This document shows positions 4,960 to 7,453 of a DNA stretch of 64,000 bases, piece by piece. Every line of letters starts with the position of its first letter. Position 1 is the first letter of the stretch. The notes beneath the pieces were generated by a model. The model was not told where the DNA came from. It did no database searches and saw only the letters and a program-made list of their open reading frames with translations. The stretch is taken from contig NZ_VOSS01000014.1 in assembly GCF_007997035.1 (NCBI RefSeq), positions 62,001-126,000 on the forward strand, given 5' to 3'. Position numbers and translations under genes: made by a program. This DNA is from Ralstonia sp. TCR112. GTDB lineage: Bacteria > Pseudomonadota > Gammaproteobacteria > Burkholderiales > Burkholderiaceae.

Positions 4960-5754
4960 CTACCGGCCGAGCCCCTCGTACAGGCCCGTCACGTCATCCA
5001 TGACCTGAAGGATGCGCTCGCTGGTTGTGGCAACGTTGCGCAACTGCTCGGCGCGCGTTCCTTCCGTTTGCTTGAGGGCTTCTGCAAAAAACAGCCATTG
5101 CGTGTTGGCCAATTGCAGCTCACTGCTGATCGCCCCGGAGTTCTGCGGCGCAGACGTGAGAAATGCCTGGGCAGCGGCAAATTCCTTCATGGCTGAGTCC
5201 AGATCCTGCGTCATCTGCGCGGACGTAATGTCCCACGCGCGGAACATGCTCAGCTTGGCGATGCGCTGCGACAGCATCCGCTGGCGGCCGGCCACGTTGA
5301 TCAGCTTGCCCGTCGCCGTGCCCGAGTATTTCTCCAGCAGTACCGTGCCCTGTTGTGCGAATTTCAGCACGTCTTCACTGGCCTGAGCGATCTTCCTCGC
5401 GTTGTCGATGTTCGGTTCACCGCCCGTGAGCAATCGCCTGTAAACGATCCACATCTGCTCAAGCTTGGCGTAGGTGTCCTTGATCTCTGGTGTGGGCGCG
5501 AACGCCTTCAACTCCGTGAGTTGTTGATCGAATAGCGCGACGGACTGTTCGAGAATCCTCTTCGATCGCTCGACCTCGACGCCCAGCCCGATCTGGCAAT
5601 ACGCCTTGGCCATGCGTTGCGACAGCATGCGTTGGCGGCCCGCCTTGTTGATGGCCGAGTTGATCGTCAGCGGTTGCGCGCAGGCGCTTCCAATCAGCCC
5701 CGACAGCAGGGCGGTGCAGAGCAGCAAGCGGATGAATTGCAGGTAAGGTTTCAA
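4960..5754 (-). CDS. Secreted double PilJ-type sensor-domain protein (nitrate-sensor-like)
   Basis: A 264-residue protein read from a TTG start at 5754 behind a GGAG ribosome-binding site; no in-frame ATG precedes the conserved region. It begins with a signal peptide (IRLLLCTALLSGLIGSACAQ), so it is periplasmic. The mature protein has the PilJ N-terminal helical-bundle signature twice: INKAGRQRMLSQRMAK (just after cleavage) and INVAGRQRMLSQRIAK (about 60% along). This arginine-rich helix resembles the P-box of NarX and the nitrate-binding PilJ domain of the Pseudomonas chemoreceptor McpN. There is no transmembrane anchor or signalling domain after the bundle. It lies 25 bp downstream of the cytosolic PilJ-domain gene and probably shares its ANTAR-type leader. 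Ligand and partner are inferred. Confidence 0.75.
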   Translation of the reverse strand: MKPYLQFIRLLLCTALLSGLIGSACAQPLTINSAINKAGRQRMLSQRMAKAYCQIGLGVEVERSKRILEQSVALFDQQLTELKAFAPTPEIKDTYAKLEQMWIVYRRLLTGGEPNIDNARKIAQASEDVLKFAQQGTVLLEKYSGTATGKLINVAGRQRMLSQRIAKLSMFRAWDITSAQMTQDLDSAMKEFAAAQAFLTSAPQNSGAISSELQLANTQWLFFAEALKQTEGTRAEQLRNVATTSERILQVMDDVTGLYEGLGR

Positions 5755-5779: not shown

Positions 5780-6508
5780 TCAGCGCAGCGAAATGTGCCC
5801 GAAGGTTGGCGATACGGGCGTCGATGGCCGGCGCGTGCCCGCACCGGACTGCGCGTCGTTCGTGCCGACGACGTTGCGGATCAACTGGTCCATCTCCTGG
5901 ATGATGTCTGCCAGCACCGTGGTGATGACTGAAAACTCGCGCCCATATGGCCCCGCCCGCGCTGCCGAGACGCGCGCGTTCATGGCGACGATGTTGGCCT
6001 GCATCGAGATGCGTCCAAGGTGCGCGGCGATGTCTGCCTGGCGCTTGCGCTGTGCGACCTCGCACACGTGCATCTCGTCTTGATAGGCCTGCGTGATCGT
6101 CTGCAGCAGCTCCAGCATGGGCGTGGCCTGCGCCACGAGCGCATCCAGCGACGGGTTGCGTTGCGTCGTGCCGGACGACAGCGTCTCGATGGCGCTCTTG
6201 GCCAGCACGATGAACTCGCGCACACGCGCATCGCCGCGCAATTTGCCGGAGTACACCTGACGCAATGCTTCGGAGAATGCGCCGGGCAGCCGCGCATTGC
6301 CCTCGACAAGATCGGTGTGTGCCGCTGCGAATGTCGCCAGGCATGACTTCGCGATGTCGAGCGCCGTGGTGTGGCCCTGCGCGGCCAGCACCATGTGCAA
6401 CACGATCCGCTGCGACAGCATGCGCTGGCGCCCGGAAAGATTGATCAGCTCGCCAATGGTCTCGACGGTTACGTCGGCCGTGGAACCCCGGGTGGTGGAA
6501 GCGTTCAT
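5780..6508 (-). CDS. Cytosolic PilJ-domain protein with shortened MCP-like hairpin
   Basis: A 242-residue protein with no signal peptide or membrane helix. Its N-terminus (about 15-45) carries ELINLSGRQRMLSQRI, the PilJ/type IV pili chemotaxis transducer ligand-domain signature. Its C-terminal third (about 165-215) reads like the tip of a methyl-accepting chemotaxis hairpin, with QANIVAMNARVSAARAGPYG followed by REFSVITTVLADI matching the usual NLLALNAAIEAARAGE-GRGF core, but far too short for a full receptor. The ATG at 6508 has an AAGG ribosome-binding site. The 5' leader holds an intrinsic terminator and an ANTAR-like dual hexaloop RNA. Established: PilJ domains can bind nitrate (McpN). 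Inferred: a soluble nitrate sensor linked to nitrate assimilation. An alternative is a cytosolic chemotaxis accessory. Confidence 0.75.
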   Translation of the reverse strand: MNASTTRGSTADVTVETIGELINLSGRQRMLSQRIVLHMVLAAQGHTTALDIAKSCLATFAAAHTDLVEGNARLPGAFSEALRQVYSGKLRGDARVREFIVLAKSAIETLSSGTTQRNPSLDALVAQATPMLELLQTITQAYQDEMHVCEVAQRKRQADIAAHLGRISMQANIVAMNARVSAARAGPYGREFSVITTVLADIIQEMDQLIRNVVGTNDAQSGAGTRRPSTPVSPTFGHISLR

Positions 6509-6556: not shown

Positions 6557-6626
6557 AAAAAAAGCGCTCCGAAGCGAGATGGCGACGCACCGGTTGCCCG
6601 GGTCGTGCCATGTCGCCTCGGAGCGC
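6557..6626 (-). terminator. Intrinsic terminator in the 5' leader of the PilJ-domain gene (attenuator)
   Basis: On the minus strand, a 20-bp near-perfect stem has arms at 6607-6626 and 6564-6583, with one C:C mismatch and one G:U pair. It is followed by seven U (6557-6563). It sits about 50 nt before the start at 6508, and no minus-strand gene lies upstream that it could end. It therefore looks like a regulated leader terminator. Its 5' arm is shared with the second ANTAR-type hairpin (6617-6638). Confidence 0.8.
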
Positions 6627-6701
6627 CGTTGCCCCGAACGCTCCGCTGCGGAGCGTGTCATTGCGATGTGCCAAGGTGGATCAAGGCCGCCGTTGGCCTT
6701 G
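6617..6701 (-). promoter_or_regulatory. Candidate ANTAR antitermination RNA element (dual hexaloop hairpins)
   Basis: Minus-strand hairpin P1 (6682-6701) has stem CAAGGCC/GGCCTTG and hexaloop AACGGC. Hairpin P2 (6617-6638) has stem TTCGGGGC/GCTCCGAG (two G:U pairs) and the same hexaloop AACGGC. Known ANTAR targets have two such hairpins, each with A at loop position 1 and G at position 4, and P2 competes with a terminator; both rules are met. The linker (about 43 nt) is longer than usual and itself folds into a small hairpin (6638-6656). The binding ANTAR protein is not in the window. Confidence 0.65.
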
Positions 6702-6779
6702 TCCTTGCCCATGCAATAGCCATGCCACGGGAGAGATATCGACGTGCCCGTTGATCTGCACGCCGTAAAGGGTTCAGCC

Positions 6780-6797
6780 GCACTAATCTCGTGCCAA
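6780..6797 (-). promoter_or_regulatory. Possible sigma-54-like promoter upstream of the ANTAR leader
   Basis: The minus strand reads TTGGCACGAGATTAGTGC. The -24 half TGGCACG is perfect, but the -12 element is GT in place of the invariant GC at the correct 10-bp spacing. It would start the transcript about 65 nt before hairpin P1. The -12 mismatch makes this uncertain. Confidence 0.3.
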
Positions 6798-6943
6798 ATG
6801 CCTCATGACGAGGCGTGCGCGTGCGCCATGCACCGGCCAGATCGCTGGCCTACACTGTGCCCTGCGCGACAAAGCGCGGCGCCGGCAGACCGGACAGATG
6901 ATCGCCGGCGGCCACAACGATGGATACCAAGGACATCATTTCC

Positions 6944-7453
6944 ATGACGACACCTTCGATGTACGAGTTTCTGGTCCCGACCGTGAACCGCATGCTGGGC
7001 AACCTCTCGGCGCTGCTCGACAAGGCGGCCGCCCACGCAGAAGCGAAGAAATTCGACCCGGCTAACTTGATGACGGCGCGTCTGGCGCCGGACATGCATC
7101 CGTTCACGCGGCAGGTGCAGATTGCCTGTGACCAGGCCAAGGGCGGCGCGGCGCGTCTATCGGGCAACGAGGTACCGTCGTACCCGGATGTGGAGACGAC
7201 CATTCCGGAGCTGAAGGCGCGCATCGCCAAGACGCTCGAATTCGTCAACAGCATCGACGCTGCGGCATTTGCCGGCAGCGAAGATCGCCAGATCACCCTC
7301 AAGAGCCCGACGCGAGAGCTGCAGTTCACGGGCATCGATTACCTGCGCGGTTTTGTGCTGCCGAACCTGTATTTCCATGTCACCACGGCCTACGCGCTGC
7401 TGCGCCATAACGGCGTGGAAATCGGCAAGATGGATTTCCTCGGGCGCCCCTGA
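6944..7453 (+). CDS. DUF1993 family protein
   Basis: A 169-residue soluble protein from the ATG at 6944 (MTTPSMYEFLVPTVNRML), preceded by AAGGA. An in-frame ATG at 6920 would add eight residues. The N-terminal MYEFLVPTVNRMLGNLSALLDKA and the later PSYPDVETTIPELKARI, then YFHVTTAYALLRHNGVEIGK, are typical of DUF1993, a DinB/YfiT-like helical-bundle family with no established function. The C-terminal motif HVTTAYALLRHNG is the most conserved part. It is divergent from the PilJ-domain leader and followed by a separate TPR gene about 185 bp later. No operon partner is apparent. Confidence 0.85.
   Translation: MTTPSMYEFLVPTVNRMLGNLSALLDKAAAHAEAKKFDPANLMTARLAPDMHPFTRQVQIACDQAKGGAARLSGNEVPSYPDVETTIPELKARIAKTLEFVNSIDAAAFAGSEDRQITLKSPTRELQFTGIDYLRGFVLPNLYFHVTTAYALLRHNGVEIGKMDFLGRP

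What the first reader, a model, noticed from the sequence alone, without database searches (positions are those of the whole stretch)
6557..6701. ANTAR-type antitermination leader in front of a nitrate-sensor-like gene pair
The minus-strand leader of the PilJ-domain gene has two hairpins with the same hexaloop, AACGGC (A at 1, G at 4, as required for ANTAR binding). The second shares its 3' arm with a 20-bp terminator stem and T7 tract, so the two folds exclude each other. No gene lies upstream that would need this terminator. This points to antitermination by a trans-acting ANTAR protein, known mainly from nitrate and ethanolamine control. I am not aware of it being described for orphan PilJ-domain genes. 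The 43-nt linker with its own hairpin is an unusual variation.
Basis: partly seen in the sequence, partly recalled or inferred. Interest (0 to 1): 0.78.

Follow-up and report, generated by a model that had tools for sequence, protein, structure and literature searches.

The report
Nitrate-controlled RNA switch before PilJ genes
Ahead of two nitrate-sensor-like genes in a Ralstonia bacterium lies an RNA switch that should stop transcription unless a nitrate-responsive protein grabs two small RNA loops; similar switches, some with an unusual extra hairpin between the loops, stand before nitrate-use genes in its relatives.

Summary
On the minus strand, two AACGGC hexaloop hairpins (6701-6682, 6638-6617) precede a terminator (6626-6564, T7 at 6563-6557) that shares an arm with the second. 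A scan finds one such module in the 64 kb and none in 40 random sequences. Loop A1/G4 holds for hairpin 1 in 28 of 28 leaders and hairpin 2 in 26 of 28 by script. Hairpin 1 and the terminator show compensatory changes. The genome has one ANTAR protein, NasT-like.

I infer a two-key switch: nitrogen limitation starts transcription, nitrate through NasT lets it pass.

The same genome has two more such leaders, before an nrtA-like gene and before narK-nirB. In a Paraburkholderia-type genome the PilJ gene precedes narK, nirB, nirD and a nitrate-reductase-like gene.

Most unusual is the linker: 5 nt in the nrtA leader, 39-46 nt with a hairpin close to hairpin 2 in the narK and PilJ leaders, outside published ranges. 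Rfam's narK RNA (RF03032) looks like the same element. New variant of a known kind; nothing was tested at the bench.

The parts
6780..6794 (-). NtrC-like palindrome GCAC-N7-GTGC, about 80-95 bp upstream of the inferred transcript start
   Evidence: Position. The pattern lies 67-78 bp upstream of the sigma-54 box in 11 of the 12 Ralstonia/Cupriavidus-type loci (L010-L017, L031-L034; missing in L034; L031 repeats L015); not found near the promoter by this pattern at the other 20 ortholog loci. That NtrC binds it is inferred; the consensus is recalled.
6713..6727 (-). sigma-54 promoter box TGGCATGGCTATTGC (-24/-12)
   Evidence: TGGC-N7-TTGC at 32 of 32 gene-1 ortholog loci, two of them exact repeats; its TGGC and ATTGC columns are invariant in 26 aligned leaders.
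6682..6701 (-). P1 hexaloop hairpin, loop AACGGC; starts at about +1 of the inferred transcript
   Evidence: A1/G4 in 28 of 28 leaders; 6 of 7 pairs with double changes.
6638..6656 (-). linker hairpin between P1 and P2
   Evidence: A hairpin is predicted in the linker of 26 of 26 leaders, ending 0-4 nt before P2; fold.
6617..6638 (-). P2 hexaloop hairpin (antiterminator), loop AACGGC
6564..6626 (-). intrinsic terminator stem-loop, mutually exclusive with P2
   Evidence: -49 kcal/mol; 18 of 26 pairs with double changes, 0 of 500 shuffles as high.
6557..6563 (-). T7 tract of the terminator
5783..6508 (-). gene 1: PilJ-domain protein with an MCP-tip-like C-terminal hairpin, 242 aa (stop 5780-5782); no signal peptide noticed by eye
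   Evidence: Pfam PilJ E 6e-10, MCPsignal E 3e-8 (34.0 bits, just below cut-off 34.6); AlphaFold model mean pLDDT 82; profile matches chemoreceptor signalling domains (2e-13) and McpN 6gcv (9e-5) in the PDB.
4963..5754 (-). gene 2: protein with two PilJ domains behind a signal-peptide-like start (by eye), TTG start after GGAG (stop 4960-4962)
   Evidence: Pfam PilJ E 1.6e-23, two stretches; two exact N-box matches; start seen; matches McpN 6gcv (3e-4).
6920..7453 (+). divergent DUF1993 gene; not a user of the terminator

Best explanation
A two-key, nitrogen-controlled leader. Key 1 (inferred from the conserved -24/-12 box and the NtrC-like site): under nitrogen limitation NtrC activates sigma-54 RNA polymerase, which starts at about 6701, so the transcript begins with hairpin P1. 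Key 2 (structure shown, binding inferred): without nitrate the transcript ends at the terminator at 6626-6557. With nitrate, the single ANTAR protein of the genome (NasT type) binds the A1/G4 loops of P1 and then P2 and holds P2, whose 3' arm the terminator needs, so polymerase reads through into the PilJ gene pair. The pair (by sequence one cytosolic, one exported PilJ protein with nitrate N-boxes) probably senses nitrate for the same assimilation regulon, which in this genome also has NasT-type leaders before an nrtA-like gene and narK-nirB. The linker hairpin probably stacks against P2 and stands in for the short linker of classical targets.
For: Dual hexaloops with A1/G4 in 28 of 28 (P1) and 26 of 28 by script (P2) leaders. 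Covariation in P1 and terminator; the scores for P1+linker+P2 and for the terminator exceed 500 shuffles. Sigma-54 box at 32 of 32 loci. One ANTAR gene, with a receiver-like domain below cut-off; in related Ralstonia it stands next to the nrtA-like gene. Two sibling leaders in the same genome: L002 before the nrtA-like gene and L006 before a NarK-family gene (TIGR00886, 297 bits, cut-off 312) with nirB next. In Paraburkholderia-type genomes the leader precedes gene 1 and narK (L028, L035, L180), and in L180 also nirB, nirD and a nitrate-reductase-like gene on the same strand. N-boxes in gene 2 twice, in gene 1 with one change, against the pattern read in PMC6381276.
Against: No expression or binding data. 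P2 pairs show no double changes (2 of 6 never vary), as its sequence is tied to the terminator. In minimum-energy folds of the stretch from P1 to just past P2, both hairpins form in 20 of 26 leaders; P1 is missing in L012, L030, L033 and P2 in L026, L028, L037. ANTAR genes are as present in 11 of 11 genomes lacking gene 1. The 40-47-nt linker lies outside lengths that work for EutV (passages of PMC3369931 and PMC8934654) and outside the 2-25 nt used by PMC8164766. Three of the 32 ortholog loci (L024, L027, L040) keep both hexaloops but have no T-tract, and L022 has the promoter but no hexaloops.
Confidence: 0.85

Rival explanations
1. The leader is mainly a decoy: a short terminated RNA with two hexaloops that soaks up NasT, with the PilJ genes served by leaky read-through.
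For: A strong terminator. A hexaloop RNA that sequesters EutV (EutX / rli55) is named in a passage of PMC8934654.
Against: P2 is built into the terminator in the 26 aligned leaders, which a pure decoy would not need. Similar leaders stand before narK, nrtA-like and nirB genes.
Confidence: 0.06
2. A plain attenuator or insulating terminator without an ANTAR partner; the hexaloops are inert.
For: The terminator is stable on its own (-49 kcal/mol). Four of 32 relatives lack one or other element.
Against: A1/G4 is kept while the other loop positions vary among 8 P1 loop sequences. No upstream gene needs insulation.
Confidence: 0.05
3. The leader is coding: gene 1 starts at ATG 6712 and the hairpins are incidental.
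For: The frame is open from 6712 (310-aa ORF).
Against: Distances from the promoter box to the gene start vary by numbers not divisible by 3 among close Ralstonia (222, 219, 218, 221). Pairs co-vary. Protein conservation of the upstream frame was not tested separately.
Confidence: 0.02

Closest known systems
NasR/NasT-type ANTAR antitermination leaders of nitrate genes (Klebsiella nasF, Paracoccus nasA, Bradyrhizobium nosR; passages read)
   Same: An ANTAR protein acting on leader hairpins and a terminator before nitrate genes; hexaloop with A1/G4 in nasF.
   Different: Controls a PilJ sensor pair; a 40-47-nt linker with its own hairpin; 5' end set by a sigma-54 box right at P1.
Enterococcus faecalis EutV / eut leaders
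   Same: Two hairpins with hexaloops, A1/G4, mutually exclusive terminator.
   Different: Linker 5-12 nt there; changing it to 3 or 14 nt strongly lowers induction, and adding 20 nt abolishes antitermination (passages of PMC3369931, PMC8934654).
Rfam RF03032 'narK RNA'
   Same: Its consensus reads as a sigma-54 -24/-12 box plus a CAACGGCG hexaloop hairpin. The 3 hits above its threshold found here carry the box, two A1/G4 hexaloops and a T-tract.
   Different: The window leader scores 23 bits, below the gathering score of 43.2. The model marks one hairpin only.
McpN nitrate chemoreceptor (PilJ domain, PDB 6gcv)
   Same: PilJ domain with an N-box in gene 2 and a near-match in gene 1.
   Different: Gene 1 has only a short MCP-like tip and no membrane segment that I noticed (no predictor was run); gene 2 has two PilJ domains and no signalling domain in Pfam.

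Membership tests
ANTAR target RNA (dual hexaloop) | two hairpins, 6-nt loops, at least 3 bp stems | tested here: met
   both stems present in 28 leaders. As the minimum-energy fold of the isolated stretch, both form in 20 of 26.
ANTAR target RNA (dual hexaloop) | A at loop position 1 and G at position 4 in both loops | tested here: met
   P1 28 of 28; P2 26 of 28 by script, the two others seen.
ANTAR target RNA (dual hexaloop) | P2 overlaps an intrinsic terminator | tested here: met
   T-tract at 28 of 32 ortholog loci (L031 and L038 repeat L015 and L028), absent in L022, L024, L027, L040.
ANTAR target RNA (dual hexaloop) | ANTAR protein encoded in the genome | tested here: met
   One in G000; at least one in 30 of 30 related genomes.
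ANTAR target RNA (dual hexaloop) | linker of 2-25 nt (curation rule in PMC8164766; 'variable' in PMC3369931) | tested here: not met
   40-47 nt between 6-bp stems in 25 of 26 leaders, 25 nt in L015. Met by the nrtA-like leader of the same genome, 5 nt.
ANTAR target RNA (dual hexaloop) | binding by the ANTAR protein and antitermination | not testable with these tools
   Needs protein-RNA or reporter assays.
Rfam RF03032 narK RNA | score at or above the gathering threshold of 43.2 bits | tested here: not met
   23.0 bits, E 0.23.
sigma-54 promoter | TGGC(A)-N7-TTGC at -24/-12 | tested here: met
   6727-6713; 32 of 32 loci, invariant TGGC and ATTGC columns.
sigma-54 promoter | transcript start 12 nt downstream, activator-dependent | not testable with these tools
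   Needs 5'-end mapping.
nitrate-binding PilJ domain (N-box of PMC6381276) | [IVL][ND]xAGxQRML[ST]Q | tested here: inconclusive
   Gene 2: two exact matches; gene 1: one match with A replaced by S. Binding untested.

The most novel reading that the evidence does not exclude
Burkholderiaceae use a separate class of ANTAR target in which the P1 and P2 loops are about 40-60 nt apart and bridged by a linker hairpin close to P2, sometimes closed further into a three-way junction. One and the same NasT then reads both this and the classical few-nucleotide geometry in one cell. That would mean the spacing rule derived from EutV is about three-dimensional distance, not nucleotide count, and that searches limited to short linkers miss such targets.
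Probability: 0.45. Interest if true: 0.6.

Novelty: new variant of a known kind. Interest (0 to 1): 0.5.

Why it matters
It links an ANTAR switch to PilJ-domain nitrate-sensor-like genes. No title or abstract start in the listings (30 papers, 20 shown; 29, 20 shown; 7) reports that pairing; their bodies were not read for it. It shows two target geometries in one genome with one ANTAR protein, which makes the question of how ANTAR dimers span two hairpins testable. It also suggests a function for an Rfam motif (narK RNA): a sigma-54 promoter joined to a NasT target. In the Ralstonia genomes searched no separate NasS-like protein passed the threshold used, so what tells NasT about nitrate there is open.

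Tried and rejected
Coding leader (ORF from 6712): rejected because the distance to the gene start is not kept modulo 3 among relatives. Terminator of an upstream gene: rejected, the neighbour is divergent. Gene 1 as the partner of NasT in place of NasS in Ralstonia: attractive because each of 7 Ralstonia genomes has only one NMT1_2 protein at E 1e-50 or better, 457-937 bp from the ANTAR match, while in 7 other genomes it lies 48-85 bp from it (in the window's genome the next NMT1_2 hit after the nrtA-like one has 101 bits). But 4 of 9 other Ralstonia genomes lack gene 1 and 3 of those 4 keep the nrtA-type leader at E 0.01, so it is not generally needed; kept only as an idea. A three-way junction closed by the linker: at least 3 closing pairs in 12 of 26 leaders, so not general. 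RF03032 weak hits in the window's genome: 15 at E up to 10 (at that limit 13 of 14 control genomes ring too), 8 had loci. Three are modules (L002, the window's own = L003, L006), 5 are not (L004, L005, L007, L008, L009), 7 were not inspected. Of the 80 loci, L052-L110 (partial PilJ matches) were not examined for leaders. Paper searches for the narK RNA gave nothing; the paper that I recall as describing it is not held.

Full report
What is there. Reading the minus strand, an NtrC-like palindrome (6794-6780) is followed by a sigma-54 box TGGCATGGCTATTGC (6727-6713), hairpin P1 with loop AACGGC (6701-6682), a linker with its own hairpin (6656-6638), hairpin P2 with loop AACGGC (6638-6617), a terminator (6626-6564) and T7 (6563-6557), then AAGG and the ATG of gene 1 at 6508. 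Gene 1 (5783-6508) is a PilJ-domain protein with an MCP-like C-terminal stretch. Gene 2 (4963-5754, TTG start behind GGAG) has two PilJ stretches behind what looks like a signal peptide (by eye). The DUF1993 gene upstream is divergent.

Is it more than chance? The leader folds 6.2 standard deviations below shuffles. A module scan finds one hit in the 64 kb window on both strands and none in 40 Markov sequences. Folding the growing transcript, P2 is present until about 6574 and then displaced; forcing P2 in the full leader costs about 14 kcal/mol, so a bound protein would be needed to keep it.

Relatives. Gene 1 was found in 20 of 120 genomes of the family (own included; within the genus 6 of 10) and in named genomes of Ralstonia, Cupriavidus, Paraburkholderia, Burkholderia, Trinickia and Caballeronia (L031-L041). 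Of 32 ortholog loci, all 32 have the sigma-54 box. 28 have the complete module (26 after removing two exact repeats), 3 have both hexaloops but no T-tract (L024, and L027 and L040 with the same letters), and one has no hexaloop (L022). The more distant homologues L042-L051 (30-43% identity) show no such module in the 480 nt scanned. L031 (Ralstonia sp. A12) has the same leader letters and contig position as L015 of a same-genus genome, so the window's genome is a Ralstonia; the species was not determined.

Conservation of the signal. Searching for any 6-nt loop, P1 is A1/G4 in 28 of 28 leaders although eight P1 loop sequences occur (AACGGC, AATGAA, AACGGA, ATTGGC, AACGCA, AATGAC, AATGGC, AACGGG). 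P2 is AACGGC or AATGGC in 26 of 28 by script, the other two being script misses. On the 26-leader alignment, P1 has double changes in 6 of 7 pairs and the terminator in 18 of 26. The covariation scores of P1+linker+P2 together and of the terminator exceed all 500 shuffles. P2 has no double change, and the count of pairs with double changes for P1+linker+P2 is reached by 13 of 500 shuffles. Shuffles ignore relatedness, so these are not probabilities, but sliding the partners by 1-3 columns drops paired cells from 83-85% to 34-51%. In minimum-energy folds from P1 to just past P2, both hairpins form in 20 of 26 leaders; P1 fails in 3 and P2 in 3 others.

The linker. Between 6-bp stems it is 40-47 nt in 25 of 26 leaders (25 nt in L015) and in 26 of 26 contains a predicted hairpin ending 0-4 nt before P2. 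On the plain alignment this helix pairs in only 64% of cells, as its letters and length vary; energy z-scores are modest (mean -1.6, 19 of 26 below -1). Published limits: 5-12 nt in eut leaders with loss of induction at 3 or 14 nt (passages of PMC3369931), loss on adding 20 nt (passages of PMC8934654), 2-25 nt as a curation rule (passage of PMC8164766).

The regulon. The window's genome has one ANTAR protein, with a receiver-like domain below cut-off. In related Ralstonia genomes it stands upstream of a strong NMT1_2 protein gene on the same strand, which I call nrtA-like from recall; in the window's genome the two lie on separate contigs. The nrtA-like gene has its own leader: sigma-54 box, P1 AACGTG, 5-nt linker, P2 AACGGC, terminator. 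A third leader (L006) has a box TGGCATACCTGTTGC, P1 AAAGGC, a 39-nt linker with hairpin, P2 AACGGC and a T-run, before a NarK-family gene (TIGR00886, 297 bits against a cut-off of 312) with nirB next. So both linker geometries occur in a genome where one ANTAR protein was found. In Paraburkholderia-type genomes gene 1 is followed by a NarK-family gene (TIGR00886, below its cut-off) and, in L180, by nirB, nirD and a molybdopterin oxidoreductase with a flavodoxin/FAD part (nitrate-reductase-like) on the same strand. L044 has such a reductase, narK and a gene 1 homologue in a row.

Rfam narK RNA. The Rfam model hit here is RF03032 (23 bits, below threshold). Its consensus contains the sigma-54 box and a hexaloop hairpin. 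In 200 family genomes 35 had hits at E 0.01 or better, none above threshold; in 250 genomes of the order 6 at 1e-5 or better, 3 above threshold; controls 0 of 14 in both. Of 37 loci inspected (30 of the 37 places, the 6, and L006), 33 have the box and two A1/G4 hexaloops by a script that asked for A1/G4 (in L152 it took an inner hexaloop for P2), 3 (L127, L149, L160) by eye with a mismatched stem, and one (L145) has no box and looks like a chance hit. A T-run after P2 was seen in 22 of the 30 loci and in 6 of 6. I conclude that narK RNA is probably a sigma-54 promoter plus ANTAR target; searches found no paper saying so, but the source paper is not held.

What the genes do. Gene 2 carries two exact N-boxes and gene 1 one with A to S (pattern from passages of PMC6381276, where an arginine at the binding site contacts nitrate). 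The gene 1 model is a helical bundle with a C-terminal helical hairpin (mean pLDDT 82); its profile matches chemoreceptor signalling domains and weakly McpN. Gene 2 is next to gene 1 in Ralstonia (5 of 6 distinct loci; only a remnant in L011) and in two of three named Cupriavidus loci; it was not found beside gene 1 at the other ortholog loci searched (the short loci hold only about 1.5 kb downstream). A nitrate-sensing role is inferred.

Papers. PMC3369931: outline, passages and all of section 10. PMC7496416, PMC6759348, PMC12316311, PMC6381276, PMC8934654, PMC8164766, PMC5424462: passages. NasS-NasT release on nitrate: abstract start of PMC3795266 in the listing and a passage of PMC6759348.

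Verdict. Observation confirmed; interpretation supported and extended. Kind of system known; the long hairpin-bearing linker, the PilJ cargo and the sigma-54 coupling make it a new variant.

Noticed in passing
Rfam RF03032 hits, e.g. L156-L161, L002, L006: The Rfam narK RNA reads as a sigma-54 promoter plus a dual A1/G4 ANTAR hexaloop target; the model marks only one hairpin.
   Followed up: partly
L024, L027, L040 (upstream of gene 1): Both hexaloops and the promoter are kept but no T-tract follows, so control may act differently there or be decaying; L022 has lost the hexaloops and keeps the promoter.
   Followed up: no
L152 leader: A hairpin between P1 and the terminator-side P2 is itself an A1/G4 hexaloop (CAGCC[AACGCA]GGCTG), a possible triple-hexaloop target.
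   Followed up: no
G000 contigs C102 and C92; relatives L111, L113, L115: Ralstonia has nasT next to an nrtA-like gene and one strong NMT1_2 protein per genome (7 of 7 searched), so no separate NasS was seen; how NasT senses nitrate there is open.
   Followed up: partly
L001 downstream of nasT; between nasT and nrtA-like gene in L113, L115: An array of short GC-rich repeats lies between nasT and the nrtA-type leader, possibly the reason for the contig break in the window's genome.
   Followed up: no
L011 (G058): Gene 2 is missing except for about 18 of its last codons directly behind gene 1.
   Followed up: no
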